From positions 1 to 20,673 of the IMG/VR virus record IMGVR_UViG_3300030103_001449: 20,673 bases of DNA; one strand, written 5' to 3'. Positions 1,704 to 20,673 of this stretch are shown here, one piece after another. Source of the DNA: a virus. How positions within the stretch are numbered: the stretch's first letter is position 1; every line of letters starts with the position of its first letter. A program made the position numbers and the translations under genes. Under the pieces are notes generated by a model, which saw only the letters and a program-made list of their open reading frames with translations, searched no databases and had not been told where the DNA came from.

Positions 1704-3707
1704 CTAACTTAGTAGTTGAATACAAAAATTTGAATTTGAATCTATATCCATTTGTGCCGTGCCACCGCTTTGATAAATTCTAATATAAGCAGTATCACTA
1801 GCATCCATATCGGCTACACATGTAAATCCCATAGTCACATAAGCAGGAGCAGCGTTAAAATGTTGAGAACCGTTACCCATCAAATCACCCCACCTGTTAC
1901 CGTTACTTGTAACCAAATAAAGATAATAATAAGTAAAGTCTGTAGGAACGCTTTCCATTCTGATATTAGTTGAAACTAAATATTTGCCTGTAACAGGAGC
2001 AGTAAAAGTATAGGTGCTTGTATCAAAGTCGCTATTTACATCAAAAACTTCTGAGTTAAATTCTACTGTTTGATTTGTATTAATAGGTATATTATGTTGA
2101 ACGCTGCCTCTTTGTACATGAACTGATGGTTGCTTAGGTTTGGTTACATGACCTGCCGAGTCAATACGCATTCTTTCAGAATTACTTGTGCCAAATAATA
2201 AAGATCCTGCTTCTCTATTCCAAAGATATCCTGTTGTGCCACTAACAAGAAGGTCTAAACCATCAGTAGCACTATTACCTGTTATGCTATCTGATACTTT
2301 TATAATTGAACTTTGTGTACTGGAATGGACATTGAGCTCTCCTGAAGGACTCGTAGTTCCTATTCCAACGCTTGCTCCATCAATAATCATGCGTTCAGTT
2401 CCGCCAGTATCAAACCTTATTTTGTCCTCGTCAGAACTTTCTTCGACCATTACTTTAGTATCGCCATCAGCGTCTGATAACTGTATGGCAGAGTTTATTT
2501 GCCCGACAGCGATTGACATAACTTCAACAGATACACCGTTTGCTGGGGCCTCAGTTAGCGTCAAAGTTGTACCGCTAACGCTATAAGTCGCTTTTTCCTG
2601 ATAGACTCCACCGACATACACTTGTGTATTGTTTTCGTTAGCTGGAGCTGCTGCTAAAGTAAAAGCAGTAGTCGAACCATTACCTGTAAACTCATCTATT
2701 AAAACACTGGAAGCCGCAGCGCTAATATCTAAAACTGTATGCGTAATAGCTTCTACTGCTGTTCCTGTTGGTGGAGCCGTAGAAAAAGTTAGTGTCTGGC
2801 CTGAAATACTGTAAGTGCTTTTGTTTTGATAAGTACCGTCTATGTAAACTTGTACGTTGTTTTCGCTCACAGGAGTTACTCCTAAATCTAAAGTAGTATC
2901 ACTGTTATCTCCTGTCATGGTTGCAATAACCATGTTTGCTCCTTGTAAATTACTTAGAGCAGAATATATTGTTACCTCCCTACCAGAGGCTGGAGCTGTA
3001 CTTAGCGTAACAGTCGTGCCCGAAACGCTATAAGAATTATGTGCTTGGAATACCCCGTCTATAAAAACTAATAATTGTTTCTCATCTTGTACTGCATTTG
3101 AAATAGTAAAAGCAGTCGTAGAAGCATTTGCAGTCGTATAAGTATTAGTTACAAGAAAATCTGAACCATCTGCTAGATCACCCCAAGCATTTGTATAACC
3201 CTCAAACTTACCCGTTGTTGAGTTATATCTTAAATAACCTGCTTCTGGAGATCCGGGTCTCTGTGCAGTCGTACCTACAGGGACGTGTAAAGAATCTGTT
3301 TGTGAGCCTAAATCAAGAGATACCTCAGGAGTTGAGTCACCAAAACCCATTTTATTACTTGATAAAGTAATATCATTACCAGAGAGGTTGAAAGTATCAA
3401 CCATCCCTGCTGTCAATCTAAGTTCTACTTTATCGCCTGAACTAAAAGCTCTAGCAGTAGTTCCCTCTTGAGCTCTAACTACAGTTAAATTTTGATTACC
3501 TGCATTACCAGATGAAAAAGTAACTTTTACTATTTCATTATTGGTATCGTCATCAAGAGTAACAAAGAAAAAATTATCGGTTGCAGGGTCTGTTGGATCG
3601 GCAACAGGAAATACACTACCCTCCGTCACCGGAATGGTAGTCGTAGAATTATTTACCCCACTAGATAGCGTGGTTTTGGCATTGTTCTTAAACGCAAGGC
3701 CCGTCAC
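1704..3707 (-). CDS. Long tail fibre protein with tandem beta repeats and C1q-like tip (667 aa)
   Basis: Starts with GTG at 3707, preceded at 8 bases by a perfect AGGAGG. Residues about 1-105 match the phage fibre N-terminal pattern in which a TTIPV segment leads to TVVRAQEGTTARAFSSGDKV and a trailing LRLTAGM; this end probably attaches to the tail. Residues about 125-180 hold a linker with GTTAQRPGSPEAGYLRYNS, common in fibre shafts. Three tandem repeats follow at about residues 185-402, each with a (V/F)(I/V)xGxxQ core and a Y-S-(V/I)-S-G turn. Next come RMIIDGASVGIGTTSPSGEL and a second SERMRIDSAGHV segment, typical of shaft-to-tip transitions. The last roughly 140 residues (525-667) resemble a C1q/TNF-like trimeric jelly roll, with YTFTAPVTGKYLVS and a terminal FCIQLLS strand. 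No S74-type autocleaving chaperone domain is visible. Probably a trimeric adhesin. Confidence 0.88.
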   Translation of the reverse strand: MTGLAFKNNAKTTLSSGVNNSTTTIPVTEGSVFPVADPTDPATDNFFFVTLDDDTNNEIVKVTFSSGNAGNQNLTVVRAQEGTTARAFSSGDKVELRLTAGMVDTFNLSGNDITLSSNKMGFGDSTPEVSLDLGSQTDSLHVPVGTTAQRPGSPEAGYLRYNSTTGKFEGYTNAWGDLADGSDFLVTNTYTTANASTTAFTISNAVQDEKQLLVFIDGVFQAHNSYSVSGTTVTLSTAPASGREVTIYSALSNLQGANMVIATMTGDNSDTTLDLGVTPVSENNVQVYIDGTYQNKSTYSISGQTLTFSTAPPTGTAVEAITHTVLDISAAASSVLIDEFTGNGSTTAFTLAAAPANENNTQVYVGGVYQEKATYSVSGTTLTLTEAPANGVSVEVMSIAVGQINSAIQLSDADGDTKVMVEESSDEDKIRFDTGGTERMIIDGASVGIGTTSPSGELNVHSSTQSSIIKVSDSITGNSATDGLDLLVSGTTGYLWNREAGSLLFGTSNSERMRIDSAGHVTKPKQPSVHVQRGSVQHNIPINTNQTVEFNSEVFDVNSDFDTSTYTFTAPVTGKYLVSTNIRMESVPTDFTYYYLYLVTSNGNRWGDLMGNGSQHFNAAPAYVTMGFTCVADMDASDTAYIRIYQSGGTAQMDIDSNSNFCIQLLS
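1707..2135 (-). other. C1q-like C-terminal domain of the fibre
   Basis: Residues about 525-667 of the fibre. Visible hallmarks are an early V-x-F-N-S-E-V-F-D strand, the YTFTAPVTGKYLVS strand-turn-strand (C1q domains have 'F-x-x-P-x-x-G-x-Y-x-F'), several aromatic strands and a closing FCIQLL strand at the very C-terminus. C1q-like domains trimerise and serve as binding tips; that function is inferred here from the family. Confidence 0.65.
2502..3155 (-). repeat. Three tandem beta repeats in fibre shaft (protein-level)
   Basis: Three diverged copies with a spacing of about 75 residues. Their cores read QLLVFIDGVFQ, VQVYIDGTYQ and TQVYVGGVYQ, each followed by a YSVSG or YSISG turn and a TLTxxxAP strand. 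They are diverged at DNA level, which suggests old internal duplication. They probably form a modular fibre shaft. Confidence 0.75.
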
Positions 3708-5633: not shown

Positions 5634-6028
5634 TAATCAAAATCATCTCTTACTTTGAATTTGACTAAATCTTGTACGGTCTGTATTCCACCACCGCTTG
5701 TAGTGTGTTCTATTTCACCTTCAAATGTGCCTGAAGTTGTCCAAGTACCACTTGGAAAAGCCACGGCAACCTGTCCGGTTGATGCACCTGTAACCGTAGC
5801 AGAAGCATCTGTAATTGAAGCAGTTATTGTAGATAAAACAGTAGTTTTGCCTACCTCACGTATTCTTAACTTAACAGTTGCACCCGATAAAGAAACGGGT
5901 GCCCATGTAGTACTATCATCTGGATCTAAAGTTTTACCACTAGCCGCAGAGTTACTGTCTTTCAACGTAAAGTTAAGTTGAGGTAAAGTGTCCCCAACCA
6001 CTAGTTTTATTGTATTCGAATATGCCAT
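5633..6028 (-). CDS. Ig-like baseplate/fibre attachment protein (131 aa)
   Basis: Small all-beta protein beginning MAYSNTIKLVVGDTLPQLNF. The order of segments is GDTLPQLNFTLKDSN, a 'VSLSGATVKLRIRE' strand pair, a run of Thr/Ala-rich strands, 'GQVAVAFPSGTW' and 'GTFEGEIEHTTSGGGIQTV'. This matches the general layout of the Ig-like N-terminal module of BppU-type baseplate proteins (GDT-x-P ... L-x-G-A-x-V-x-L-x-I-R ... G-x-x-x-x-E), which makes up nearly the whole protein here. Such proteins usually anchor or extend tail appendages. The ATG at 6028 has GAGGT (6033-6037) upstream. It is the first gene after the giant internal protein and the last base of its stop is shared with the next start, so it opens the appendage block. 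Assignment to the exact family is tentative. Confidence 0.82.
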   Translation of the reverse strand: MAYSNTIKLVVGDTLPQLNFTLKDSNSAASGKTLDPDDSTTWAPVSLSGATVKLRIREVGKTTVLSTITASITDASATVTGASTGQVAVAFPSGTWTTSGTFEGEIEHTTSGGGIQTVQDLVKFKVRDDFD

Positions 6029-6052: not shown

Positions 6053-9000
6053 TTAGTCATAACCAGCAGCTCCAAAATACGGCACATAATCCCATACATT
6101 ACCCCTACCTTCTATAATATCTATAACTCTTTCAGGAGTAGGGCCAAGTAAAGGTGTAAAGAAAGTATCTCCATACAAATCAGCTTCCATTGCAGGTATA
6201 AGTAATCCATATCTACCAGTAACACCCGACCTGTCTACAATATCAAACATGTAAGTAGGCCAAGTCATATCATCAGATCTAAATACTTTTGGATTCCCTC
6301 CTTGTAACACGTATTTTAAAAGCTCTCTTAATTCTAACCCTAACATTGCTAAAGGTAGCATTGTAGCTAACATAATAAGTAAAGGAGTCATGGCTCCTAT
6401 AGTGCCAGTATACTTAGCTTCTCTTTTCATGTTGTTATATACATTTTCTCCAAAAACTTTTCCAAATGAATAATAAAAAGGTTTAAGTTGTGCTAACAAA
6501 GCGAAAAAAGGATTGTTCATCCAAATAGTCCTCTGGGCTGCGTTAGGTTTTAACATCATTTCTCCAACCAACATGTTAATTGCATCTCTAAATTTAACAG
6601 TAGTAGCATCTGTTCTAAATGCTTTATCGTACTCTACAAAACTTTTAGGCGCTCCTTGAAAAAATCCAATTTTGTCCATCGCATATTTAGCTTCTCTAGC
6701 AGTCAATCCAATATTATCTAAACGTTCTATAGACTTTTTGTCGCCGGCTAGAGCTCTTTTAGTATCAGCTTCTATTGCATACAACGCTACCAACCCTGCA
6801 TTTCTATTCAAATGGTTCATCATCTTTGTAATAAAAATACTCTTAAAGAATAATTTAGAATATCTAGCAGTAGTATCAGTCATCCATCCTAAATCTCCTG
6901 CGTAGATACTTGCTTCAATTGCTTGGCTAATCCCCATTTGCCCAACAGCTCTCATCATGTTGTTAACTTCATCTTTGTTTCTAAGGTTTCTTATAATAGC
7001 TTTTGTGGTTAATCCAAACCCTTCTAAATTACCTCGTTGTATTATTGGTCCAACAAATTCTGGAAGAGTAGATAAAGAACTGAAAGTAAGAAAAGTAACT
7101 TGATTAAGTAAAGCAGCACCAGCTTGGAAATTTCTAAGTACAGGCATATTGTTTATATTCATTCCCGCTTTTCCTAGTATCGCACTCAAAGCATATGTAG
7201 CTTCAATAGGATCAGGCACTTTCGGGTTAAGCCAAGCCTCTGCTGTCGCAGCTCTCCAACCTCGCATATCGTATTTGTCTTCATCAAATTTTAATTTTTC
7301 TTCTGCAGGTAATCCTTCATTATTATTTTTTAAACGCTCTCTTTGTTCTGCACGCGTTTCCATGTCTGCAAAAGTTTGTAAAAAATCTGTTTTTACTTCT
7401 TGAGTTTTAGAAGTAAAAGTTTTTTGGCTAACTAGGCCACGCGCTCTTTCTATTTCTTTATCAGTTAAAAGATGTCGTACTTTTTCATTAAAAACAATTT
7501 TGTTAGTAATACTTCTTAGGGCAAAAATTTGCGAGTCTACAATATCAGTTAACAACTCATTTTCTAGCAATCTATGAGTAGGTATATTTTTCAATACCCT
7601 TTGTCTACTAGGCGACATACCGACTGCTACTGAAGAAACCATAGGGTTTATTTCAACTTCTTCCTTAGCTAAATAAGCCCCTGTTTCTCTATTTTGAATC
7701 ATCTCATCAACAGTTTTTGTCGCCTCACTTTTATTAATATTGTTGTTATATTGCATAACTAAAGCAATAAGACTGTTACGATGAAAAGAAGAGTTACTTA
7801 ACTTATCAATGTCATAGTTCCTACTTAAGTCAAAATTATCCATGGTAGACAATTGAGCTTCTTGCATGTCAAGTTTCACTCTCCTAAAAATAGGCCATAA
7901 AGCTAAAGTTGTCAGCCTTGCTTTCCTTACCCCATTTCCAGCATTAGGCAACCCGGAACGATATTCAGGGTCTTCTAATTGTTTTTGTAGCTCTACCTCT
8001 CCTAAAGCGTCCATGTCTTCAGAATAATGAGTAAAAGCTTTTTTAAGCTGTCTTCTACCTTTAGGACTAATCTCGTTATCATCGAAATTAATTCCAAATT
8101 TTTTATCGCCTAAAGGAATGTTAAGTGCTTGTATTAAAGGTTCAAATAAATTGTTTAAAACCCTGTTAAACTTTTGATCTTTTTCTTGAATAAAACCGAG
8201 CCCTTGTCCTTTTTGTTGAGTTTCTTTATACACAGCATCAATGAAAGCCTGAGTAAAACCCACTGTTTGCAAATATCTAATATTTGAACCAAATACTTTT
8301 TTAAGTAGTCTGTTAAATTCTTTTATTATTTGATTACTAGATAAAGAGCTATTAAAAATTTTATCCACTTTAGTTTGTATCTCTTCTCCAGACATATCTC
8401 TAATAATTGGATCTTGGTTTTTTAAATCTTCAAAAATCTCAAAAGTAGCTTGCCTTCCGCTACCTCTATCTTTGTAAGTACCAGCAAAATCTTCAGCTAC
8501 AGACACAATTAAATTATTTATATTGTCAGTAGTTGGTTTTGTTGTTCGTCTTAAAATATTCCTAATAAATTTCATTTTAGATTCGTTAGAATATCTTTTC
8601 ATTCTTCTAACTAAACCAGCTACATAAGCTTTTTCTCGTGCAGATACTGTTGCAACTTTAGGCGCTTGTTTAAGAACCACACTAGCTACGTTATCAGCAA
8701 TTTTTTCTTCAAAGCCATATTTTTCTTTGTACTGTTTAGGAGCGTCTTCTTTATCTCTTTCTTGTTTAAACTCATCAAGTAAAGCTTTTCCAAAAGAAGT
8801 GTCAGGAGTAATTCTAGTTTCATGGTATTCATGGAAAAAAGAATGTCCAAAAGAATGGAATAATCCAGCTAATACCACACCCTCTACCTCAGAAAGTTCT
8901 ACTGAAGCTGTGCTTTTTGGATCTCTAGCTAAAGCTTCATTTAATTGAGAAGTATATTTTTGAGGGTTTTTTAAAACAATAATATCTAAACCTTTATACA

Positions 9001-12000
9001 ACAGCATAGTTTCTGGTCTAAATAAATCGTCTCTGAATGATTTTTCCTCTCCCTCTCTAACACCGTTAATTAACTCATCTACTTTTACATTTAGATGCGG
9101 GTCGTCAAAGATAATAGGTTTGTCTTCGAACATTACATAGATTCTTCTATTACCTAACCCTAGTGTTTGCACTGCTACATTACTTAATATATTAATAGGG
9201 TCTACAAGTTGCCCTACTTTACTTAAGTTAAACCCTTGGTTCTGGGCTATCTCTGTTCTTAAGTTATATAAATCGGTAGCGTCTGGAAAAGCGGTTTTTG
9301 CATTTCTTTTCAATCTATTTAAAAGATTTACTTCGTCAGCTTCTAAATTATTTTTTCGTAACAGATCTAATATTTGTCTAGAAATACCTTGACCATCTAC
9401 ATTACTAATATCTTTATATTGAGAACTAACTCTGTCTTCTACAAAAACGCCAGGGCCATCTGAAACTCCTACTCTACCTACAACTCGTTCACCGTTTATT
9501 TGTTGTAAAGTTATTTTAGGGTTGTAAGTAGATGCAGTTTTTTCTCTTATAAAGTCAAACTCCTGCATTTCTTCATCGCCGAACGCACCGCGCACATCAT
9601 CATTAAAATTATCTAGCTTACCCTCTTCATCCCCAAATAAGTCACTAATGTTCATGACCTCTTGTGCATAATCTTCTTGGATTAAAAATTTATTTTGCCT
9701 AGCTATTGACTCAAGTATCTCTAGTTTTTCTTCTAAACTAGGGAAAAAATAAAGCCCTGGATTCTTAATAGCTGCTTCTACATATTCTTGTTTAGCTTGT
9801 CTGTAGTCAGAAGTACGCCTGTCGAGCTGTGTAAGATTAGCTACAGTTCGTAACGCATCGTCCAATATTTTTTCGTAATCTACGGTTTTACTTAAAGCAG
9901 GAGCTGCCTCACCAGATCCAGCAATGTTTAGTCTTTTTATTTTATTATCAGTTAAAAACTGAATTATTTCTTGCTCTGATTTAGGATTGAGCAATACTGG
10001 AATATTAACCCTATCTGCTATTCTTTTAGTTAAAGCAGTTCCAGGACTTAATCCACCATCAGGGCCAACATCAGAAAATAAAATAACTCCATCCGAACTT
10101 TTTACTACAAGCTCTGTTCTTTCTTTGTAGCCGAGCTTTAATACCACTGCGCGGCTTGTTGGATTAATGTTTGTTTTTAATGTGGTGTTTAAAAATTCTA
10201 CTTCTTCTTGTAAAGACTTAAACTCTTCTGTGCCAACTAATTCAGGGAACAACATTTTAATTTCTTTAGCCTGTGTTCTTGGTACACTTATTTTCTTTTT
10301 ACCTCTACCTTTGGTAGTACCAGCGAATACACCGTATAAAGGTATATTATGTTTTAAAGCTAATTTAGCCCCAGCCGCATCAACTCCAATCTGCATACCG
10401 CTAGTAATTTGTATATCTTTCTGTAAATCATTTAAATTTAAACGCTCACTAATAGCACGGTCTCCCGCTTTTAAATTATTTTGTTGTAAAAAAGCAGAAG
10501 TTACCGCTAGGTCAAGCTCTTCTAACGTATAATCAGGGTCAGGAATTCCTTCTTTGTAGTAGTCGCTGTTTATATCTTCTAATTGAGGGTCTGTAATTTT
10601 TCTTTGTAAACCGACTATTTGTTTAACTAAATTAAGTTTTCTTAGTTTTTGTCTTTTTCTGTAATAAGGAGTTTGATTAAAGTTTTCAACTAATTCTTTT
10701 GCCGACTTAAATGATTTACTCGCGCTATCATAATATATAGGCAAATTAAGTAAATCGAACTGTGTTTTTCCTACCCCTTTCTTTCTCATAAATTCTACCG
10801 AACCTACTTCGCTTAATTCTTTTATAATCTTAGGTAAAGAAAGTTTTTTTAAAATTGGAGCGTTAAAAGTATGAAGATTTTTATGATTATTAAGGACCGT
10901 AGGCTCAAGAGCAAAAAGATCTTTTCCCAATTCTTGTGCTATGCTTTTTATAGGGATTGTTTGGTAAGCAAAACCATCGGGAGTTAGCGTTTTATATTGA
11001 AAAAGAATTTCAGCTTCTTTGTCATTTTGATCTTTAAAACTAGTTAAGTATTTTTGTTCTAATAAAGTAGCAAAGCCCATGGCTACTCTATAAGTGTATG
11101 GTATTGTTTCTTTTTCTATGCTGTCTAATTTAGAATCAAAAATTGCAGTTCCTGCAGATAAAACATCATTAAAAGATAAAACTTGGTCTACCTCTTGTCC
11201 GTTTGTATAAGTTCTTTTTACCCAACTAAACTGCATAGCATTCTTACCTGGAGTTTTATAATAACTTCCATAAAGAACTTGATTGTTTAAAAAAGCTTTT
11301 TCAGTAGCAGTGCTCATAGCAGTTTGCACAGCTTTCTCTGGGGTCATACCTGAGAACTTATCGTTATACAATTCAGGTAAAGACTCTGCAGTTCTTTCTT
11401 TCAAAATAACTTGGTAGTTATCTTCTATCTTTAAACCTAACGCATCACTATTAGTTCTTACAAAAGCTAAAAGTTCTTTTGCTGTAGAAGCACCAAAACG
11501 TTGTTCTAATACAATAGTAGGTATAGTTTTTTGTCTTGCTCCTTGTTCTTTTGGTTTTTTAAACAAGCTTTTTAAATTGCTTATGTAGTCTTGTGCTTTA
11601 ACTAAGTCAAACTCGTCAGAACTCATAATAAAATTAGGTCCGACTGTCGCATCAGGAGAAGCTAACCCAACTAAATTAGCTAAAGAAATAGAATCTTTTT
11701 TAAATATGTTATCGACAGTAGGTATAATTACAGCACTAGTAGCTATACGAAAAACAGAATTTGGATCTGCCTCGGAAGCTCGAATATAATTTTTTAAAAT
11801 AGCAGCATTTGCTTTGTTTATCTCAGGATCTACTAAAGAAAACTCAGCCCCATCAATATAGTCAGCTAATACCGAACTTACAGAAGGCCCGCTGTTTAAT
11901 CCAAATTGTCTTAAAGGAATACCGTCTACTTCCGCTCGTTGTAAAATACTTTCTCTTGCTAATTGTTTAGCTTCATCGGGTGTTAGATCTGAAGATTTCA

Positions 12001-15000
12001 TTGCTAACTCCAAAGCCTCTTTTTGCATTGCCGACCTAATTTTTTCTTTAGCGTCCTCCCCTAAAACAAAACCATTATCGTCACTTATAACTCTGTCTTC
12101 CAATTGATCTAGTAAAATGTCCACTTCACGTAAGAAGCCTACAGCTGAACCCTGTAGTAGATTTTCACGCCTTTGCTTGCCTACCCCTAAATCTTGCAAT
12201 AATAAACTTTCTACTGTTAATTGACTTACTTCTTTAGGCCCAGCAAGACTACCTTTTGAAAGTATGTCTGATCTTTTAGCTTCTAGCTCTTGTCTTCGTT
12301 TGTCTAACTCAATTAATCTGTTTTGTAATTTAGTTTTAAAAGCATAATATTCAGTAGCTTCTACGTTTAGAGAGTTATTAAGTCTAATTATTTTTTTAGC
12401 TTCTTCTGCAGTCTTTGCGTCTTTTATTGCTGCGTTTATTTTTCTTAGAGTTGTATTATCTCTAGAAGTTAAATTCTCAAATAAATCTTGTTTCTTATCA
12501 ACTTCTTGATTTAAAACAATTATGGCTTCGTTAACTTCTGATAACTCTCCTGAAGTATCGTCAATAAAAATATCAGTATTGTTTAACTCAGCTCTTACTA
12601 AAAAGCTTTGGGCTTTTGCTCTTAACGTTCTTAATGTTGTTGCATCTTTTTCGTTTAACTTTTCATAAGTAGCAGAATCTACTGGTTTAAAAGCGTCTTG
12701 TTGTCTACCAGATACTAGAGTAGTTTGTCCAATATTAGGCACATTTGTTATGTCCTCTGGTCTAATACCAAGACTTATAAATTCAGTAGCTTCAGTTTCA
12801 GATATTCCAGCATCAATAAAAGCCTGTTTTAGTTCCTGTTCAATGTCAGAGGTAGTTAAATCTTCTTCCTCTGCCATATCCCTAATAATAGGGTTCTCTG
12901 TAGGTTCAACATTGTTTAATCCTGCATCAGTTAAGTTACGTTGTCTTGAAGCTTCGACCGCTTCGATCCTTTGTTGTTTTTCTTCAGCTGATAGATTAGG
13001 GTCAGCATTAATGTTAGCTATAAACCTATCGTGCGCTAAATTAATATAAAGTGCCGCTGCTGCGTCTCCCATATTCTTTTGTATAGTAGTTACATCAGCT
13101 TCACCATCTCTAGTAAACATTTGTTTTTTGGACCCTACATCTCTATCTACTTTGCCTTCAATTAATTTTTTATCTTCTGCAGATACAGTCTCTTCATCTC
13201 TTATATTAGCTTCAACTCTGTCTTCTGCTACTTCTTCAATAGACTTTATAACAACTTGTCTTTTCTTTTTAGTGCTTCTTAGGTTTTGTAGCTCTGCTAG
13301 GTCACTAGAAAAATCTTCATTGTTTGCCATCTTTTCAAGCACTGCTTCTTCTAAAGCATCTATGCTTTGAGGTTGTTCTGTCTCAGGCAAAGGTAAGTCT
13401 AACTGAGTAGGCTCAACTTCAGGTTCAACGTCAAGAATTTGATCTTTCATGACACTGTATTTTTCTTCTGGTTTATATTGTTCATCTGCTTTTATAACTA
13501 CCTCTTGAACTTGTTCAGGAGGAGTAGTTTGTTCCCAAACGACTTTGTCGTTTTCTAATAATTGAACAACTACTTCATTCCCAGTAGAAGAATCTGGAGT
13601 AGCAACAAAATCTAAAATATCAGTCAATACATCCCTAACAGAAACATCTTGAAACCTTTGGTTGTTGTAATAAGTATTTAAGTTTGGATTAACAGAAAGT
13701 AAAATACCGTTCCCATCTTTATCAATAGATAAATGTATCTCTGGGACATTACTTTCATCTTTACCTTGGCTTTCATAAGCTTCAAGTAAAAACTCCTGTA
13801 AAGCAGTTCTATTGATAGTGGTGCCATCTTCATCAAGTAATCCGTTAGCTCTTAGAGCATCTATAGGAATCCAAACAGCTTCTCTTTTGTAATCAGGGTC
13901 TACCATACTGTTTAGCTGTGCAAAAATGTCTTCTTTAGCTTCAGGTAAACCTAAATCTTGAAGATTTGCATACGTCTCGTCTTGTATGCTTTGCCATTCT
14001 AAATCTGCTTTTTTCTGAATAATAAAATCCCTAGCTTGTCTAAATACAGACGCACTAACTCCACCAAGAACACCACGAGCTCCACCAGCGGCTGCCCCAT
14101 CAAAAAAAGCTTGCGACCTACGTAACTTAGCTTCAGCCCCTTGTATATCAAAAGTAGGATTATTAAGCTGAGCTTGAGACATAATCAACTCTTCTTGTAA
14201 GAGTTCAGTAGAACCTTCGCTAAGTTTACTAGCCAAAGTGACCCTACCTATGTCTCTCATCAACTCTAAAGCTGATCTTTTTTCATATTTTCTTAAATAG
14301 TTTTGACCTAACCTACCAATAGAATCAAGTCCTTTTGCCCTAGCTAAATTAGCTAAATTAAGAGCCAACACGTCTCTTTTACTTAATTTTTCACCACGTG
14401 CTGCACGTGCCCTGGCCTTGTTTAACCTAGTAGTACCAGCAGCTAATTTAAATAGAGAGCCAAAAAATACTGCTTCTCCTAATACTTCTATACCTGCAGC
14501 AGGAACTCCTACAAGCAAAGCCATCGCAGCTTCATCGCCAGTCAATTCCATACCAGCTTCTTGGTATTCTCTTAAAATCTCTGGGGCAATCATTGTCTCA
14601 GCAGCAGCGAAAGCACCTAACGCTCCTCCTATTTTTGCGTCTCTTAGATACTTTCTAGAGACGTCCATAACTACTTTTTCTTCTGGTGTTAAATTATCAA
14701 TACCTTTATTACGTAGAGTTTTAAACCAAAGTTCTTCAAAAGCATTAGCGCCTACAGCAGCCTCTGCTCCTTCGTCTACAGTGCCTGGTAATAAAGCTAC
14801 AGGTTCTAACCTTCTGTTATTCCTTAAGTTACCTATTTTTCGAGTGGTTTTGGTTAAAGTGTCTTTTAATGCCGCTCTACCAGCACTAGTAAAAGCAGTT
14901 CTACCTGCAGTGGCAATTAAACCCCCTGCGAGTGCTTCTCCAACAGTTAAAGCAGCGGGATAAGCAAACTGTCCACCAGCACGTAAAATTTGATTAAACG

Positions 15001-15388
15001 CCCCACCTAAAGTTGGTTCTTCTAAGAAATTTTCAAAAGGTTCTAAAGGCGCAAGAGCTGCTTGAATATATTCATCGTGCTGTTGCATACGATTAAGATT
15101 TATTTGTGCAGCATCTTTGTCTCCCGCTATTAAGTTACCAATTGCAGCTAACCCATCAAAAGATCCTTTGACTTGTTCTGCACCTGCAAGCACTCCTCTT
15201 CGTAAGTACTCCCTGCTACCGAAAACCATTTCAGTATCATTTCTAGGGCTTTGAGGATCTGTAAGACCAATAAAACGACTAGCCTCTACAGCTTGCCGTT
15301 GTCTTTCTGCTTCTACTTTAAATTTACCTGGTCTTTGTTCAGGGTCTTGGCTATCTCGTAGAAGTATTTTTTCAAGTTCATTGGCCAT
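6053..15388 (-). CDS. Giant phage polyvalent / internal virion protein (3111 aa)
   Basis: One uninterrupted frame of 3111 codons, coupled to the upstream gene by TAATG. Residues about 135-320 contain Ala/Gly-rich hydrophobic helices. An acidic Pro/Glu linker lies near 640-680, and long charged helices around 680-1150. Residues about 1658-1835 form a SLOG domain of the cpYpsA / putative molybdenum-cofactor-carrier type. Residues about 2160-2250 resemble a zincin metallopeptidase, but the HExxH reads HSFGH (2178-2182). The C-terminal third is helical; residues about 2720-3060 resemble the large-polyvalent-protein domains found at the ends of phage giants, with a hydrophobic helix at about 2997-3019 and a WMNNPFFALLAQLKPFYYSF segment just before it. 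Polyvalent proteins are thought to be packaged and injected with phage DNA to act early in the host cell. I see no lysozyme/transglycosylase motif and no convincing RNA polymerase motifs. The gene is confident; the overall function is inferred. Confidence 0.85.
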   Translation of the reverse strand: MANELEKILLRDSQDPEQRPGKFKVEAERQRQAVEASRFIGLTDPQSPRNDTEMVFGSREYLRRGVLAGAEQVKGSFDGLAAIGNLIAGDKDAAQINLNRMQQHDEYIQAALAPLEPFENFLEEPTLGGAFNQILRAGGQFAYPAALTVGEALAGGLIATAGRTAFTSAGRAALKDTLTKTTRKIGNLRNNRRLEPVALLPGTVDEGAEAAVGANAFEELWFKTLRNKGIDNLTPEEKVVMDVSRKYLRDAKIGGALGAFAAAETMIAPEILREYQEAGMELTGDEAAMALLVGVPAAGIEVLGEAVFFGSLFKLAAGTTRLNKARARAARGEKLSKRDVLALNLANLARAKGLDSIGRLGQNYLRKYEKRSALELMRDIGRVTLASKLSEGSTELLQEELIMSQAQLNNPTFDIQGAEAKLRRSQAFFDGAAAGGARGVLGGVSASVFRQARDFIIQKKADLEWQSIQDETYANLQDLGLPEAKEDIFAQLNSMVDPDYKREAVWIPIDALRANGLLDEDGTTINRTALQEFLLEAYESQGKDESNVPEIHLSIDKDGNGILLSVNPNLNTYYNNQRFQDVSVRDVLTDILDFVATPDSSTGNEVVVQLLENDKVVWEQTTPPEQVQEVVIKADEQYKPEEKYSVMKDQILDVEPEVEPTQLDLPLPETEQPQSIDALEEAVLEKMANNEDFSSDLAELQNLRSTKKKRQVVIKSIEEVAEDRVEANIRDEETVSAEDKKLIEGKVDRDVGSKKQMFTRDGEADVTTIQKNMGDAAAALYINLAHDRFIANINADPNLSAEEKQQRIEAVEASRQRNLTDAGLNNVEPTENPIIRDMAEEEDLTTSDIEQELKQAFIDAGISETEATEFISLGIRPEDITNVPNIGQTTLVSGRQQDAFKPVDSATYEKLNEKDATTLRTLRAKAQSFLVRAELNNTDIFIDDTSGELSEVNEAIIVLNQEVDKKQDLFENLTSRDNTTLRKINAAIKDAKTAEEAKKIIRLNNSLNVEATEYYAFKTKLQNRLIELDKRRQELEAKRSDILSKGSLAGPKEVSQLTVESLLLQDLGVGKQRRENLLQGSAVGFLREVDILLDQLEDRVISDDNGFVLGEDAKEKIRSAMQKEALELAMKSSDLTPDEAKQLARESILQRAEVDGIPLRQFGLNSGPSVSSVLADYIDGAEFSLVDPEINKANAAILKNYIRASEADPNSVFRIATSAVIIPTVDNIFKKDSISLANLVGLASPDATVGPNFIMSSDEFDLVKAQDYISNLKSLFKKPKEQGARQKTIPTIVLEQRFGASTAKELLAFVRTNSDALGLKIEDNYQVILKERTAESLPELYNDKFSGMTPEKAVQTAMSTATEKAFLNNQVLYGSYYKTPGKNAMQFSWVKRTYTNGQEVDQVLSFNDVLSAGTAIFDSKLDSIEKETIPYTYRVAMGFATLLEQKYLTSFKDQNDKEAEILFQYKTLTPDGFAYQTIPIKSIAQELGKDLFALEPTVLNNHKNLHTFNAPILKKLSLPKIIKELSEVGSVEFMRKKGVGKTQFDLLNLPIYYDSASKSFKSAKELVENFNQTPYYRKRQKLRKLNLVKQIVGLQRKITDPQLEDINSDYYKEGIPDPDYTLEELDLAVTSAFLQQNNLKAGDRAISERLNLNDLQKDIQITSGMQIGVDAAGAKLALKHNIPLYGVFAGTTKGRGKKKISVPRTQAKEIKMLFPELVGTEEFKSLQEEVEFLNTTLKTNINPTSRAVVLKLGYKERTELVVKSSDGVILFSDVGPDGGLSPGTALTKRIADRVNIPVLLNPKSEQEIIQFLTDNKIKRLNIAGSGEAAPALSKTVDYEKILDDALRTVANLTQLDRRTSDYRQAKQEYVEAAIKNPGLYFFPSLEEKLEILESIARQNKFLIQEDYAQEVMNISDLFGDEEGKLDNFNDDVRGAFGDEEMQEFDFIREKTASTYNPKITLQQINGERVVGRVGVSDGPGVFVEDRVSSQYKDISNVDGQGISRQILDLLRKNNLEADEVNLLNRLKRNAKTAFPDATDLYNLRTEIAQNQGFNLSKVGQLVDPINILSNVAVQTLGLGNRRIYVMFEDKPIIFDDPHLNVKVDELINGVREGEEKSFRDDLFRPETMLLYKGLDIIVLKNPQKYTSQLNEALARDPKSTASVELSEVEGVVLAGLFHSFGHSFFHEYHETRITPDTSFGKALLDEFKQERDKEDAPKQYKEKYGFEEKIADNVASVVLKQAPKVATVSAREKAYVAGLVRRMKRYSNESKMKFIRNILRRTTKPTTDNINNLIVSVAEDFAGTYKDRGSGRQATFEIFEDLKNQDPIIRDMSGEEIQTKVDKIFNSSLSSNQIIKEFNRLLKKVFGSNIRYLQTVGFTQAFIDAVYKETQQKGQGLGFIQEKDQKFNRVLNNLFEPLIQALNIPLGDKKFGINFDDNEISPKGRRQLKKAFTHYSEDMDALGEVELQKQLEDPEYRSGLPNAGNGVRKARLTTLALWPIFRRVKLDMQEAQLSTMDNFDLSRNYDIDKLSNSSFHRNSLIALVMQYNNNINKSEATKTVDEMIQNRETGAYLAKEEVEINPMVSSVAVGMSPSRQRVLKNIPTHRLLENELLTDIVDSQIFALRSITNKIVFNEKVRHLLTDKEIERARGLVSQKTFTSKTQEVKTDFLQTFADMETRAEQRERLKNNNEGLPAEEKLKFDEDKYDMRGWRAATAEAWLNPKVPDPIEATYALSAILGKAGMNINNMPVLRNFQAGAALLNQVTFLTFSSLSTLPEFVGPIIQRGNLEGFGLTTKAIIRNLRNKDEVNNMMRAVGQMGISQAIEASIYAGDLGWMTDTTARYSKLFFKSIFITKMMNHLNRNAGLVALYAIEADTKRALAGDKKSIERLDNIGLTAREAKYAMDKIGFFQGAPKSFVEYDKAFRTDATTVKFRDAINMLVGEMMLKPNAAQRTIWMNNPFFALLAQLKPFYYSFGKVFGENVYNNMKREAKYTGTIGAMTPLLIMLATMLPLAMLGLELRELLKYVLQGGNPKVFRSDDMTWPTYMFDIVDRSGVTGRYGLLIPAMEADLYGDTFFTPLLGPTPERVIDIIEGRGNVWDYVPYFGAAGYD
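6209..7231 (-). other. C-terminal polyvalent-protein-associated region with membrane-type helix
   Basis: Residues about 2720-3060 of the giant protein. Visible features are FLTFSSLSTLPEFVGPIIQ, a FRDAINMLVGEMMLKP segment, WMNNPFFALLAQLKPFYYSF and a hydrophobic run MTPLLIMLATMLPLAMLGL at 3000-3018. The arrangement resembles the LPD-type (possibly LPD38) domain at the C-terminus of large phage proteins. A role in membrane contact or virion packaging is a hypothesis. Confidence 0.5.
8639..8911 (-). other. Degenerate zincin-like segment in the giant protein
   Basis: Residues about 2160-2250. HSFGH at 2178-2182 sits at the end of a hydrophobic VVLAGLF helix, where related phage giants have HExGH. 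About 45 residues later comes F-E-E-K-I-A-D (2226-2232), which resembles the downstream 'FEExxAD' helix supplying the third zinc ligand. The catalytic glutamate position is Ser2179. HEYHE at 2186-2190 lies just after and might offer an alternative HExxE site. Confidence 0.5.
9884..10417 (-). other. SLOG / cpYpsA-type (putative molybdenum-cofactor carrier) domain
   Basis: Residues about 1658-1835. The diagnostic pieces appear in the family's order: ITSGMQIGVDAAGAKLAL (core SGxQxGVDxxA, Asp1670), the strand IPLYG, then RTELVVKSSDGVILFSD (1757-1773), the GG-x-S-P-G-TALT loop (1778-1787), a helix leading to the strand IPVLLNP, and RLNIAGSGEAAP near 1819-1828, matching the terminal 'LNVAGPRxSE'. 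These build a Rossmann-like nucleotide-binding fold. An insertion of about 50 residues replaces the usual short segment between the second strand and the T-E-x-x-V helix. Confidence 0.8.
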
Positions 15389-17787
15389 TAGTATAGGAAA
15401 CTTTGTTGTTCAAATTTAGACATAAGTGTTCTAGGATCTGTACCAGGGGCCACTCCTGCTTCTTTTAACTCGCGTAAAGCTTGTTCAAGATCTTGTCGAG
15501 TTATAGTTCCCCCAACAGGCTCACCGCTAAGTGTTTCTAATTGAAATGATTCTACAGGGGGTTGACCTAGTTTACGCACACCTCTTCTGTCAAACAAATC
15601 TTTGTACTTAGGAGTCTGACCACGTGCATAATTAGCTTTTATTCTTATTTGAGTAGGATTAAGAGGGTCAAAAGCTGAATCTTCGCCTGGTTGCCCCCCA
15701 CTTCCAAACCACTCTGCCCATGTTGGACTATTAGCTAGTTTTGAGATAAGGCCCAGAAATTTTACGTTTAGTTGGTGTAAAATATGTCCAAGAGGTTTAA
15801 ACCTAGGATTTAGTTCACCAGTGGCAGGGTCAGCAGAACTTAGAATATCATATACTACAGGGTTGGAATAAATTTCATTGTAATCGGTAAATAATAAGCC
15901 TAGCCCTTCCTCCTCTCGGTCAATGGAATACTGATCCATTTTTCTTATTAAGGCAAATGCTCCTTTTTCTTCTTTTTTAGCTAAGTCCATAAAATCAGTC
16001 TGAATGTTATTAAGTCTATCAATTTCTGCTCTTGATAAAGTAGCCTTTTCGTTAAGCATAGCTTGGTACATGCCAGTGTCTAAAGTGCCTGTGTATCTCG
16101 CAACTTCCATAAGATCAAGAATTTGTTTGCCATCAAGTTTTTTCTGAGCTTCTAAAGCAGTTAAAATGGTAAAAACTCTATTATCAATTTCAGTTCTAGC
16201 CTTAGCTGCATTTTTTCCTAATCCTGGAGAACTCGCAAAGTTACCATTTTCGTCTAACTCAGTCTCTGGGTGTAATTTTAAAGACCCGCCTCCGGTTTTT
16301 GTGTTTGTAACTAAATTAGCATTAATGTATTCATCTAATCTTGATTTGGTATATTCACTAAGCTCATAGTCTGAGTCTTCTAACAATTTAGCTATTTTTT
16401 TTACAGGTGCATAAAACTTAGTCGGGTTTTCTATAATACTAGCAATCTCTTGATTTACTTTGTCTTTACTAGCAGCAGCTACTAATCTAGGATCAATCTC
16501 ATTTTCTCTTTCTTCAATCTTCTTAGTTAACTTATCTATTTGGCGAAGCTGAGCTTCCTTTAAAGGTCCTTCTCTTTCAATATTTTCATAACGTCCTTGT
16601 ACTTTTTCTAACTCCCTTCTTAACCTTAGCAATTGGTTGTCACTTTTTAATTTATTTTCAATTCTTAATATTTCTTTTTCATCATCACTGACTGCTCGAC
16701 TTATTGCTGGATTAACTCCTCCGCGAGCGAATCTGTCCGCATCCCCCATAATCCTCTCTTCTATTCTGTCAGAATTTTTTACAGTTTGTTCCAACTCTTG
16801 TCGTTCTTTATCAGAAAGATTTAAATCAGGGTCGTTTAACTTATTAATAGCTGCCCTTTTGTCCGCCCTTACTTCTAGTAGTTTATCTCTACGGTTCGTA
16901 AGATCAGCGTTCTGCATAGGAATGCCGTATTCATTTTCTAAGGCTGTAATCTCGCTATCGGTTAGTTTAATTAATTCATCTGCTCCGCCCTCAAGTATTT
17001 GTTTTGCTCTTGCTTGAGGATTTAAACCAATTTCTTCTAAATATTGAAAAACATCTCCTGTAAATTTACTTGACCCAGTGTACGCTTGGTTATCTAGATC
17101 AGGATCGCCAGATTCACCACCATAATTAGTGCCGTTAGGGTCAGTCTGATCCGGTGGTATTTCCCTAGTAGTTACAGCGGGGTTAAGACCTGCAGGATCA
17201 GATATATAGCTGTAAGTTGTAGAAAGTCCAAAAGTTGGAGATACTTTTTGCCTAACATTATATTGATAATCTTCAAATATTTTGCCTAATTGGTCTGCGG
17301 AAAGCACTAAGTCCCCTTTCTCATCTAAGTCTTCTGGAGATAGTGTTCTAAAACGTACATTAGGCCCAGAGTCAGTGCTTTCTAGCTCCCCCAAATCAAA
17401 CCTATACACAGTGTCACCTTGTGGATTAACCTCTTCTTCAATGCCAGTTACAAAAGTTGAATTACCAGTTGCATACTGCACAAGTCCCATGCCGTTTACT
17501 ATGTCTATCATAGACTCTAAGCCAGCTTTATTAACTTTATTGCCAGCCGCTTTCCATATTTCTGGAGAAAAAGCCTGTATTGCAGAGTCCAAACTAATTA
17601 CGTTAGGTTCAGGTCCAAGGTCTGCAGTTTTTAGATTTCTAAATGCCGCTTGTTGCATATTAGTTAAGTTATCATAGGCACTTTGATAACTTCTCTCAGT
17701 AAGTTTTGTAGCAAGGTCAGAAGACCTCTCTACATTACTTAAAGTATTAGCATAGGTTCTTTGGTAAGTGTCAAGTAAAGTAGCCAT
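15388..17787 (-). CDS. Large internal virion / ejection-type protein (799 aa)
   Basis: Acidic, mostly helical protein with no recognised enzymatic motif. The N-terminus (about residues 1-60) is a Ser/Thr/Gln/Tyr-rich helix. A more globular beta/alpha part spans about 60-190. A Pro/Asp/Gly-rich low-complexity linker follows at about 200-240. Residues about 320-430 are strongly coiled-coil-like, with dense Glu/Lys/Arg/Leu heptads such as RLRRELEKVQGRYENIE. The C-terminus carries TITRQDLEQALRELKEAG before a final MSKFEQQSFLY. It sits between small helical proteins and the giant protein, the position internal core or ejection proteins occupy in podoviruses. The ATG at 17787 is five bases after the preceding stop and has only a weak ribosome-binding site. 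Exact family not recognised. Confidence 0.83.
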   Translation of the reverse strand: MATLLDTYQRTYANTLSNVERSSDLATKLTERSYQSAYDNLTNMQQAAFRNLKTADLGPEPNVISLDSAIQAFSPEIWKAAGNKVNKAGLESMIDIVNGMGLVQYATGNSTFVTGIEEEVNPQGDTVYRFDLGELESTDSGPNVRFRTLSPEDLDEKGDLVLSADQLGKIFEDYQYNVRQKVSPTFGLSTTYSYISDPAGLNPAVTTREIPPDQTDPNGTNYGGESGDPDLDNQAYTGSSKFTGDVFQYLEEIGLNPQARAKQILEGGADELIKLTDSEITALENEYGIPMQNADLTNRRDKLLEVRADKRAAINKLNDPDLNLSDKERQELEQTVKNSDRIEERIMGDADRFARGGVNPAISRAVSDDEKEILRIENKLKSDNQLLRLRRELEKVQGRYENIEREGPLKEAQLRQIDKLTKKIEERENEIDPRLVAAASKDKVNQEIASIIENPTKFYAPVKKIAKLLEDSDYELSEYTKSRLDEYINANLVTNTKTGGGSLKLHPETELDENGNFASSPGLGKNAAKARTEIDNRVFTILTALEAQKKLDGKQILDLMEVARYTGTLDTGMYQAMLNEKATLSRAEIDRLNNIQTDFMDLAKKEEKGAFALIRKMDQYSIDREEEGLGLLFTDYNEIYSNPVVYDILSSADPATGELNPRFKPLGHILHQLNVKFLGLISKLANSPTWAEWFGSGGQPGEDSAFDPLNPTQIRIKANYARGQTPKYKDLFDRRGVRKLGQPPVESFQLETLSGEPVGGTITRQDLEQALRELKEAGVAPGTDPRTLMSKFEQQSFLY

Positions 17788-17791
17788 AACT

Positions 17792-18388
17792 CTATATCAT
17801 ACTAAATAATTGACTTATAAAACTATACCTTTGAGCTGTTTGTTGTGCTTTTGCTCTGGTATAAGCAGATTCTCTTGCTCCTTGTAAACTAGCAGCTTGT
17901 CCTAATTGAGATAAAGTAGATTGGTCTACACCTAACGACAAGCCCACCAACTGTCCCAATAAATTTTGATTAGCGGTACGTTGTTGTAAACGGGCATTAT
18001 TTAAAGCGTCTGTCTGAGCTAAACTGCCTGTTAATTGGGCACTAGTTCTTCTTGCTCTTCTGGCAGCTCCCGCTTCTCTAATCCCATACCTACTTAAATT
18101 CCTTTGATCTATCTCTTGCTGCAGTCTAGAACGTGAGGTTGCATCCTCCGCGGCTTGATCTATTAAATCAGTGCTACCTAATTGTTCTATTAACTGATCT
18201 TGGTAGGGTCTAACTACGTCCTCAACAAAACTAGCTCTGTCTTCTGCAATGTCAGCAAATAGTTGTTCAGGATCATTTACTTCCCCTAAAGGTCTATCAG
18301 AATTAGGAGTTATACGTCCCCCTTCGGCAAAAGAATCAGCAATGCCGGACATTGTATCTAAATAAGGATTGTTGTAATGGCTAGGCAT
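17792..18388 (-). CDS. Probable internal virion protein, helical (198 aa)
   Basis: Ala/Gln/Arg-rich protein. Residues about 1-50 are Pro/Asp/Gly-rich and probably disordered. Residues about 50-105 contain DIAEDRASFVEDVVRPYQDQ and a Gln/Asp/Arg-rich helix. Residues about 105-198 form a long amphipathic helical region with RYGIREAGAARRARRT, many LxQxxxLNNARLQQR-type repeats and a final SFISQLFSMI. This composition and the 'NLSRYGI...AARxxR...ALNNAR' pattern are typical of small phage ejection or internal virion proteins. It starts two bases after the preceding stop (TAATTATG context) with a weak ribosome-binding site, suggesting reinitiation. Function is inferred from composition and neighbours. 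Confidence 0.78.
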   Translation of the reverse strand: MPSHYNNPYLDTMSGIADSFAEGGRITPNSDRPLGEVNDPEQLFADIAEDRASFVEDVVRPYQDQLIEQLGSTDLIDQAAEDATSRSRLQQEIDQRNLSRYGIREAGAARRARRTSAQLTGSLAQTDALNNARLQQRTANQNLLGQLVGLSLGVDQSTLSQLGQAASLQGARESAYTRAKAQQTAQRYSFISQLFSMI

Positions 18389-19483: not shown

Positions 19484-20161
19484 CTAGTAGTCTACCTCTC
19501 TTCCATATCTGCCATATCTTTTCCTTGGCGATAGTCCTGCGCTTTTGTATTTTACTGTTCTTTTAACACCAATATTTCCTCCTCTGCCTCTTAACTCAGC
19601 ATCAGATACCTCAGCTTGGAACAAATTAAAATAATCAGCAGCAGCTATTGGATCAGTCCACTGCTTTGCAGGAATTCTTAATAATCTATAAATGGTACCG
19701 TAAATAATACCGTCTCTATAAGTATTACTAAACTCAGTGTCAATGTTGTTAGTAGTCCTAGTAGGTTTTAAAGCAACATTTAATAACAATTCTTTATTTG
19801 TATTAGGCACAGGAACTAACCAAAAACTACTTGCAGTTTTTTGCAGGTATACAGTAGGAGTGCCTGTCTTATCCCTCCAGTCAGGATAATTCAGTTCTAA
19901 ACTTCTTGGACTGATTGGATCTAAATCATTACCATCATAAGTCGCCCATAAAATTTGATGTACTTCTGTGCCACTAGGCTGATCAAATTCATACTCATAC
20001 TCTCCTGATATAGTTGTAATAGGGTCTAGGTCAAATGTAAACGCCTTACTTTTTTCACACAGTTCGATAGCTGCCGAACGTATATTAGTTTGAATTAAAC
20101 TATCAGGACACCCCGGTGCATACGGTAATACTTCTTTTACTAACGATTCAAAACTAGCCAC
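19484..20161 (-). CDS. Head-to-tail adaptor protein, SU10-adaptor-like (225 aa)
   Basis: The N-terminus reads ASFESLVKEVLPYAPGCPDS, then a helix IRSAAIELCEKSKAF and a strand pair leading to SGEYEYEFDQPSGTEVHQI. This is the pattern of the phage SU10-type adaptor family ('LVxEVLPYxPGCPxxLIxxAIRxAAIEFCExSxxW'). The C-terminal half has FWLVPVPN, ALKPTRTTNNID and a helix YRDGIIYGTIYRLLRIP. The extreme C-terminus is strongly basic (KRTVKYKSAGLSPRKRYGRYGRE). Adaptors form a ring below the portal and connect it to the tail. The start codon is GTG at 20161, preceded by GCGGGGGT; it overlaps the upstream stop by eight bases. Length is close to other adaptors of this family as I recall them. Confidence 0.85.
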   Translation of the reverse strand: MASFESLVKEVLPYAPGCPDSLIQTNIRSAAIELCEKSKAFTFDLDPITTISGEYEYEFDQPSGTEVHQILWATYDGNDLDPISPRSLELNYPDWRDKTGTPTVYLQKTASSFWLVPVPNTNKELLLNVALKPTRTTNNIDTEFSNTYRDGIIYGTIYRLLRIPAKQWTDPIAAADYFNLFQAEVSDAELRGRGGNIGVKRTVKYKSAGLSPRKRYGRYGREVDY

Positions 20162-20673
20162 TAGCTACCCCCGCTTTAGGTTCATTAATATCTCCAGCTT
20201 GTTGTCCTACTCCTAAACTCTGTGCAAACAACTGATAATACGATCCTGCTGTTGCTAAATTAGAAGCATATTCTGATTCTTTTAAAAAGGCTCTGTATAA
20301 AACAAAGTTAATTAATGCGTTTGCAAAAATATCGTCTACTTGAATTACATCTGTACCCGCACTTAAATTAGTTGGATTCTTAGAGTACACGACTTCTACA
20401 TATGCACTGCCAGAAACTCCAGGGTAAACATAAAATTTACGTGGATCTCTCACGTCAAACATATAGTGTTTTACTTGTGTACCATGAGCCGCATCTCCTG
20501 TTACTGTAGGATCATGCCAACTAGGCTCGAAAGTATTTATAGCATCAAAATCAACAAGCCTTATAGTTCTAGCACCAGTTGCATCAGTGCCTGTTCCAGA
20601 CATGTTTCTTACAACTTTAATTAAACGTAACCCGTCAGTTGGGATAGATTGTTCAGTTCCCGCGGATAAAGAT
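20154..20673 (-). CDS. DUF6682-like phage structural protein, 5' end outside window (at least 172 aa)
   Basis: The frame is open from the right edge of the window down to the TAG at 20154. The internal ATG at 20603 is unlikely to be the true start, because the upstream codons read LSAGTEQSIPTDGLRLIKVV followed by RNMSGTGT. That continuous segment matches the family pattern 'LSAGTxQxLPxDGxRLLxVxRN', so the gene must start beyond base 20673. Downstream hallmarks are FDAINTFEPSWH, HYMFDVRDPRKFYVYPG and a helical C-terminus with NALINFVLYRAFLKESEYA and a Leu/Gln-rich end. Proteins of this type sit directly upstream of SU10-like adaptor genes in tailed phages and are probably structural (connector or head completion). 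The stop overlaps the adaptor's GTG start. Confidence 0.85.
   Translation of the reverse strand, partial: SLSAGTEQSIPTDGLRLIKVVRNMSGTGTDATGARTIRLVDFDAINTFEPSWHDPTVTGDAAHGTQVKHYMFDVRDPRKFYVYPGVSGSAYVEVVYSKNPTNLSAGTDVIQVDDIFANALINFVLYRAFLKESEYASNLATAGSYYQLFAQSLGVGQQAGDINEPKAGVASG

What the first reader, a model, noticed from the sequence alone, without database searches (positions are those of the whole stretch)
9884..10417. SLOG/cpYpsA-type domain embedded in a giant phage virion-type protein
Residues about 1658-1835 of the 3111-residue protein carry the ordered motifs of the putative molybdenum-cofactor-carrier / cpYpsA branch of the SLOG superfamily: SGxQxGVDxxA, T-E-x-x-V-x-x-S-D-G, GG-x-x-P-G-TALT and LNxAG-x-x-E-A-P. 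Standalone members are bacterial proteins of about 150-170 residues. SLOG folds are known or predicted to bind or process nucleotides and nucleotide-derived signals, including in anti-phage conflict systems (established for the superfamily). A copy delivered with the phage genome could sense or degrade a host alarm nucleotide, or modify NAD-like molecules early in infection; that is a hypothesis. The roughly 50-residue insertion (about 1690-1745), with a basic KGRGKKK patch, is unusual for the family.
Basis: partly seen in the sequence, partly recalled or inferred. Interest (0 to 1): 0.78.

Follow-up and report, generated by a model that had tools for sequence, protein, structure and literature searches.

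The report
Nucleotide-binding module in giant phage protein
A 3,111-residue protein of an uncultured podovirus, probably packed in the virus particle and injected into the host, carries a real domain of a nucleotide-binding family (SLOG/cpYpsA), and distant relatives of the protein have further nucleotide-type enzyme domains plugged into the same loop, which suggests a swappable toolkit aimed at host nucleotide chemistry.

Summary
Observation confirmed. Residues 1656-1831 (nt 9896-10423, minus strand) form a complete cpYpsA SLOG domain: Pfam PF12694 above its curated cut-off, a profile built without this protein family (55.5 bits; best of 1000 shuffles 5.3), hhalign to bacterial members at 99%, and a predicted Rossmann-type fold whose only strong PDB match is 3imk, a cpYpsA structure. 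The carrier protein sits in a podovirus structural gene order and its C-terminus matches proteins annotated as virion structural proteins. Injection is inferred, not shown. New here: (i) cpYpsA recurs in unrelated giant environmental phage proteins (2.5-3.5 kaa); two share only this domain, so it moves as a module. (ii) In relatives L044/L045 the cpYpsA halves flank a whole AlkB-type oxygenase, plus in L045 a DUF4326, at the loop where the window has a ~38-residue insert. (iii) The window version has lost two residues invariant in 28 relatives, so binding or sensing is more likely than classical catalysis. The 'unusual' KGRGKKK lies over the family's own PKGR position. Verdict: new variant of phage polyvalent (injected multidomain) proteins; ligand and role unproven.

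The parts
6053..15388 (-). 3111-aa giant protein, probable internal virion/ejection protein (position of T7 gp16)
   Evidence: ORF; follows 198-aa and 799-aa ORFs in the position of T7 gp14/gp15 and precedes tail-fibre genes; C-terminus homologous to proteins annotated as virion structural proteins; phrog_35479 E 1.7e-14
9896..10423 (-). cpYpsA SLOG domain, residues 1656-1831
   Evidence: Pfam PF12694, leave-family-out HMM, hhalign, AF2 + Foldseek to 3imk
10379..10399 (-). first-strand loop motif GMQIGVD, residues 1664-1670
   Evidence: G, Q, G, D invariant in 28 other members; second G is M here only (whose printed residue numbers are 3 too high)
10139..10291 (-). variable loop/insert, residues about 1700-1750; plug-in site of AlkB and DUF4326 in L044/L045
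   Evidence: low pLDDT; nested domains in relatives between profile positions 61 and 64
10088..10120 (-). RTELVVKSSDG motif, residues 1757-1767; invariant N of RTxxN is V1761, invariant T after SDG is V1768
10028..10048 (-). SPGTALT phosphate-loop-like motif, residues 1781-1787
9917..9931 (-). LNIAG motif, residues 1820-1824
8495..8878 (-). degenerate zincin-like (metallopeptidase) region, residues 2171-2298, HSFGH in place of HELGH
   Evidence: hhalign to L033/A008 region with HELGH, E 1.3e-5; motif list
6053..7267 (-). conserved C-terminal region, residues 2708-3111, shared with proteins annotated as virion structural proteins
   Evidence: Aeromonas phiA008 E 3e-22, Pseudomonas KPP25 E 7e-11
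15388..17787 (-). 799-aa protein, position and size of T7 gp15
   Evidence: gene order and size only; no similarity in cultured phages
17792..18388 (-). 198-aa protein, position and size of T7 gp14
   Evidence: weak phrog_8003 virion structural protein E 0.009
19484..20161 (-). neck/tail-tube structural protein (Bcep22-like)
   Evidence: phrog_437 E 1.1e-31
20154..20603 (-). head-neck structural protein
   Evidence: phrog_399 E 3.4e-27
1704..3707 (-). 667-aa tail fibre with T7-tail N-domain match
   Evidence: PF03906 25.7 bits, cut-off 25.2

Best explanation
A genuine cpYpsA SLOG domain is carried as cargo by a giant T7-gp16-position virion protein of a podovirus. Most likely it is delivered with the genome and binds a nucleotide-derived molecule of the host, probably an NAD/ADP-ribose type signal, and so blunts or senses early immune or stress signalling. 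It acts mainly by binding rather than classical catalysis. Shown: domain identity and predicted fold, giant protein, structural gene context, modular exchange, nested enzyme domains in relatives. Inferred: packaging and injection, nucleotide binding, anti-defence role.
For: Domain. Structural gene context and C-terminal homology to proteins annotated as virion structural proteins. Relative L033 shares the C-terminal region, carries cpYpsA, and lies beside a gene matching 'internal virion protein with endolysin domain' (phrog_342). SLOG absent from relatives phiA008 and tf, so it is accessory cargo. Domain shuffling: L017 and L019 share only 177 aa (63% aa, 71% nt). At the SLOG loop of L044/L045 sit an AlkB-type 2OG-Fe(II) oxygenase and, in L045, DUF4326; DUF4326 is independently reported fused to SLOG, Macro and NADAR in jumbo phages (PMC7824862). 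Viral SLOGs have been proposed to sense or cleave cADPr-type signals (PMC9503650). The SLOG domain of ThsA binds 3'cADPR (PMC11204291). SLOG halves of L044/L045: 5 synonymous, 0 non-synonymous changes.
Against: No ligand, activity or virion proteomics is available for this phage. ThsA-type SLOG is a different branch from cpYpsA. Loss of the TGGxxP loop and of the invariant N and T in the window could mean loss of ligand binding altogether. Injection rests on gene position and homology.
Confidence: 0.45

Rival explanations
1. Active enzyme: the SLOG domain hydrolyses N-glycosidic or related bonds in NAD/ADPr-derived signals on arrival in the cell.
For: Core motifs GxQxGxD, RT, SDG, SPGxxLT, NxAG kept; LOG-type SLOGs are N-glycosidases and viral SLOGs are proposed to cleave cADPr (PMC9503650); L044 keeps the invariant N of RTxxN.
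Against: Window and L003 replace the invariant N by V, all three family members replace the invariant T of SDGT, and the TGGxxP loop is not conserved.
Confidence: 0.2
2. DNA-handling: the SLOG domain binds DNA, like DprA, and helps genome ejection or protects incoming ends.
For: Weak DNA_processg_A match to the N-half (E 0.0018 on the segment, 17.9 bits, cut-off 29.6); the carrier is a putative ejection protein; AlkB-type domains in relatives often act on nucleic acid (general knowledge).
Against: DprA match is far below cut-off and restricted to a shared SLOG loop; cpYpsA scores much higher; Foldseek gives 3imk, not DprA, in the PDB.
Confidence: 0.15
3. Decaying passenger: a former SLOG now serves only as structural spacer or scaffold.
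For: Loss of several invariant positions in this family; the zincin-like domain of the same protein has also lost its catalytic Glu.
Against: Motifs conserved at about 50% overall identity between window and L003; 0 non-synonymous versus 5 synonymous changes in the SLOG halves of L044/L045.
Confidence: 0.15
4. Molybdenum-cofactor carrier, as the database name of the family suggests.
For: PDB and plasmid hits are annotated 'putative molybdenum carrier protein'.
Against: That name is an annotation by resemblance; no molybdoenzyme context here; Pfam now classes the family as SLOG.
Confidence: 0.03

Closest known systems
cpYpsA SLOG family (Pfam PF12694; PDB 3imk)
   Same: Same predicted fold, motif order and profile.
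   Different: Embedded in a 3.1-kaa phage protein rather than a standalone protein of about 150-170 aa; about 38-residue insert; invariant N and T lost.
Phage polyvalent proteins (Iyer et al. 2017, PMC5512222)
   Same: Giant multidomain phage protein in the virion gene region, with a zincin-like region and exchangeable effector domains.
   Different: SLOG, YpsA, AlkB and DUF4326 are not mentioned in the main text of that survey; the zincin is degenerate; injection not demonstrated here.
T7 gp16 / N4 virion RNA polymerase class of large ejected proteins
   Same: Gene position after the gp14/gp15-position genes and before tail fibres; N4 vRNAP is similarly giant (about 3,500 residues) and is ejected (PMC12633501).
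   Different: No transglycosylase or RNA polymerase domain detected; homology only to the C-terminal region of some annotated virion proteins.
Viral standalone YpsA-like SLOG proteins (PMC9503650), e.g. Maribacter phage Molly SLOG protein
   Same: Same domain family.
   Different: Those are small separate proteins, not part of a giant virion protein.

Membership tests
cpYpsA SLOG (PF12694) | Score above curated cut-off | tested here: met
   40.5 and 49.1 bits, cut-off 26.2
cpYpsA SLOG (PF12694) | Both halves present in permuted order (SGGQxGxD first, RTxxN-SDGT, GGSxLT, LNxAG) | tested here: met
   profile 6-143 of 156 aligned in order to 1656-1831; hhalign
cpYpsA SLOG (PF12694) | Rossmann-like SLOG fold | tested here: met
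   AF2 pLDDT 76 overall, mostly 84-97 in the core; Foldseek 3imk E 3.6e-7, prob 1.00
cpYpsA SLOG (PF12694) | Residues invariant in 28 sampled members, including N of RTxxN, T of SDGT and a Gly of the TGGxxP loop | tested here: inconclusive
   most kept; N to V, T to V and GG to GM in the window; TGGxxP loop not alignable with confidence
cpYpsA SLOG (PF12694) | Nucleotide binding | not testable with these tools
   needs biochemistry
Phage polyvalent protein | Very large protein encoded among virion genes | tested here: met
   3111 aa in structural gene cluster
Phage polyvalent protein | Two or more disparate effector domains in one polypeptide | tested here: inconclusive
   window: SLOG plus degenerate zincin; relatives L044/L045: SLOG plus AlkB, and DUF4326 in L045
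Phage polyvalent protein | Injected into the host with DNA | not testable with these tools
   inferred from position and homology only
T7 gp16-type ejection protein | Gene order gp14-gp15-gp16-gp17 | tested here: met
   sizes 198, 799, 3111 aa then tail-fibre genes; order and size only
T7 gp16-type ejection protein | N-terminal transglycosylase domain | tested here: not met
   no Pfam or PHROG match; in distant relative L033 the SLT domain is on the neighbouring gene
DprA/Smf | PF02481 above cut-off | tested here: not met
   17.9 bits, cut-off 29.6

The most novel reading that the evidence does not exclude
A virion-delivered SLOG domain serves these uncultured podoviruses as a plug-in platform: it binds host nucleotide second messengers (sponge or sensor), and its variable loop accepts other nucleotide-active enzymes (AlkB-type oxygenase, DUF4326), giving an injected, evolvable anti-signalling device that acts before any phage gene is expressed.
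Probability: 0.2. Interest if true: 0.8.

Novelty: new variant of a known kind. Interest (0 to 1): 0.56.

Why it matters
Viral SLOG domains have been reported as mostly standalone proteins, and the main text of the 2017 survey of injected polyvalent proteins does not mention SLOG. Finding cpYpsA repeatedly inside giant phage proteins, exchanged as a module and interrupted by whole enzyme domains at one loop, gives a concrete and testable case for phages bringing nucleotide-signal countermeasures into the cell with the DNA, before any phage gene is expressed.

Tried and rejected
No relative of the domain was found in cultured phages with the window query; with a sharper phage-type query only standalone SLOG proteins (Maribacter phages) and one protein of Virus Rctr197k were found. 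No host clue: the N-terminal region has no relative in genome contigs. AF2 of the nested L044 region had low confidence (pLDDT 48), although both SLOG halves scored about 70-91; its PDB matches are not usable. The 799-aa neighbour has no cultured relatives. For phage tf the source paper gave no mass-spectrometry proof that gp51 is in virions, so 'virion structural' there is an annotation. DprA membership rejected (below cut-off). Moco-carrier function set aside as an annotation name.

Full report
OBSERVATION. The window is an IMG/VR virus record of 20,673 bases, nearly identical over 18 kb to a longer contig (L002, 99.8%). The minus strand encodes a 3111-aa ORF at 6053-15388. Pfam finds one confident domain in it: cpYpsA, PF12694, E 2.8e-10, 40.5 bits against a curated cut-off of 26.2; the excised segment scores 49.1 bits. 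phmmer against PDB sequences gives 3imk, 'putative molybdenum carrier protein', E 8e-4, matching both halves. An HMM built only from 28 other phage and bacterial members, without this protein's own family, aligns positions 6-143 of 156 to residues 1656-1831 with 55.5 bits, E 2.3e-16; 1000 shuffles reach 5.3 bits at most. hhalign of the window+L003 pair with nine standalone members (eight from bacterial plasmids, one from a phage) gives 99% probability, E 5.8e-18, while the protein's C-terminal region as a control gives 0.2%.

FOLD. AlphaFold2 on a 21-sequence alignment gives pLDDT 76 overall, mostly 84-97 in the core and below 70 in most of the insert, with alternating strands and helices of a Rossmann-like domain. 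Foldseek against the PDB has one match below E 0.001: 3imk, E 3.6e-7, probability 1.00. In the viral library the best matches are stretches of 822- and 1404-residue models of unnamed viral proteins, then a Clandestinovirus 'DNA processing protein A' and a Medusavirus 'molybdenum cofactor carrier'.

Net extra length over the family is about 38 residues (176 residues for 138 profile positions). The KGR of 'KGRGKKK' falls where bacterial members have PKGR/PKGY, so it is not clearly a foreign patch; L003 does not keep it. Note that residue numbers printed are 3 too high; one search gives correct positions.

CARRIER PROTEIN. Upstream lie genes matching head-neck structural families (phrog_399, phrog_437) related to Bcep22-like podoviruses, then 226-, 198- and 799-aa ORFs, the giant protein, and fibre genes including a Phage_T7_tail match. 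By order and size this is the T7 gp14-gp15-gp16-gp17 arrangement; no sequence match to T7 proteins was obtained, and no transglycosylase domain was found in the giant protein. Its C-terminal 395 aa matches proteins annotated as virion structural in Pseudomonas phages KPP25 and tf and a hypothetical protein of Aeromonas phage phiA008. The SLOG profile finds nothing in phiA008, tf, or the fetched KPP25 and BcepIL02 stretches. BcepIL02, in the lineage that shares the neck gene, has its own giant DarB-like antirestriction protein. Injection is therefore an inference.

RELATIVES AND MODULARITY. Scans of viral contigs found the domain in giant ORFs: L003/L043 (3049 aa), L044 (3413), L045 (3544), L033 (2483), L017/L018 (3410), L020 (3132), L019 (at least 2853), L029 (3410); in mid-size proteins (L011, L021, L023-L027; 840-1245 aa, where for L021 and L024 a terminase large-subunit gene lies just downstream); and standalone (154-231 aa). 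All-against-all BLASTP shows window, L003, L044 and L045 are one protein family; L033 shares the C-terminal region; L017 and L020 form another family; L029 shares only the domain with the others. L017 and L019 share only a 177-aa segment around the domain, 63% identical in protein and 71% in DNA, and nothing else at E 0.1: direct evidence of shuffling. The domain tree neither shows nor excludes a single origin of the giant-protein versions. Bacterial relatives sit in short open frames of 158-325 codons.

NESTED DOMAINS. In L044 and L045 the two halves of cpYpsA (profile 5-61 and 64-142) are separated by about 268 and 386 residues. Between them lies a 2OG-Fe(II) oxygenase of AlkB type (PF13532, E 6e-10 and 1.7e-10, above cut-off) and, in L045 only, a DUF4326 (E 6.9e-5, 23.9 bits, just under the cut-off of 25). 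This is the loop that holds the window's insert. DUF4326 has been reported in independent fusions with SLOG, Macro and NADAR domains (PMC7824862). The SLOG halves of L044 and L045 show 5 synonymous and 0 non-synonymous differences; the oxygenase 13 and 4. A structure prediction of the nested region was of low confidence in the insert.

FUNCTION. The window keeps GxQIGVD, RT, SDG, SPGxxLT and NxAG (L044 has M for the N of the last motif), but the window and L003 have V for the N of RTxxN, and window, L003 and L044 have V or L for the T of SDGT; both residues are invariant in 28 others. This favours altered or non-catalytic ligand binding over the classical reaction. Viral SLOGs have been proposed to sense or cleave cADPr-type molecules (PMC9503650), and the ThsA SLOG binds 3'cADPR (PMC11204291). 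I therefore favour an injected nucleotide-binding module that interferes with or senses host signalling (0.45), with enzyme (0.2), DNA handling (0.15) and relic/scaffold (0.15) as rivals.

NOVELTY. The domain family is known, viral SLOGs are known, and injected giant multidomain phage proteins are known. The main text of the 2017 polyvalent survey contains no mention of SLOG, YpsA, AlkB or DUF4326, and the 2022 survey calls viral SLOGs typically standalone. Literature coverage here is limited to open-licence papers. I class this as a new variant of a known kind.

Noticed in passing
window 8843-8857 (-), residues 2178-2182; L033 residue 1547; Aeromonas phiA008 protein residue 1079: Zincin-like metallopeptidase region, homologous by hhalign (E 1.3e-5), has lost its catalytic Glu in the window family (HSFGH, HAYGH, HALGH against HELGH in relatives).
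   Followed up: partly
L044 residues 1819-1947 and L045 residues 1937-2065: AlkB-type 2OG-Fe(II) oxygenase inserted inside the cpYpsA domain, with HxD, H and RxSxTFR motifs visible.
   Followed up: yes
L045 residues about 1773-1857: DUF4326 domain inserted next to the AlkB domain; absent in L044, which is otherwise 96% identical.
   Followed up: yes
window 5092-5245: 54-bp tandem repeat (2.9 copies) in the 490-aa ORF, encoding repeats like DSATVSESxVLSFSSAQA.
   Followed up: no
window 5784-5823: 21-bp repeat in the 131-aa ORF; the corresponding ORF of L002 is 124 aa, consistent with gain or loss of one unit.
   Followed up: no
L021 7982-11719, L024 9210-11732: 840-1245-aa proteins with cpYpsA encoded near a terminase large subunit gene, a different context for the same domain.
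   Followed up: partly
window 1704-3707: Tail fibre with two DUF4183 stretches and a C1q-like C-terminus (21.0 bits, cut-off 23.7).
   Followed up: no
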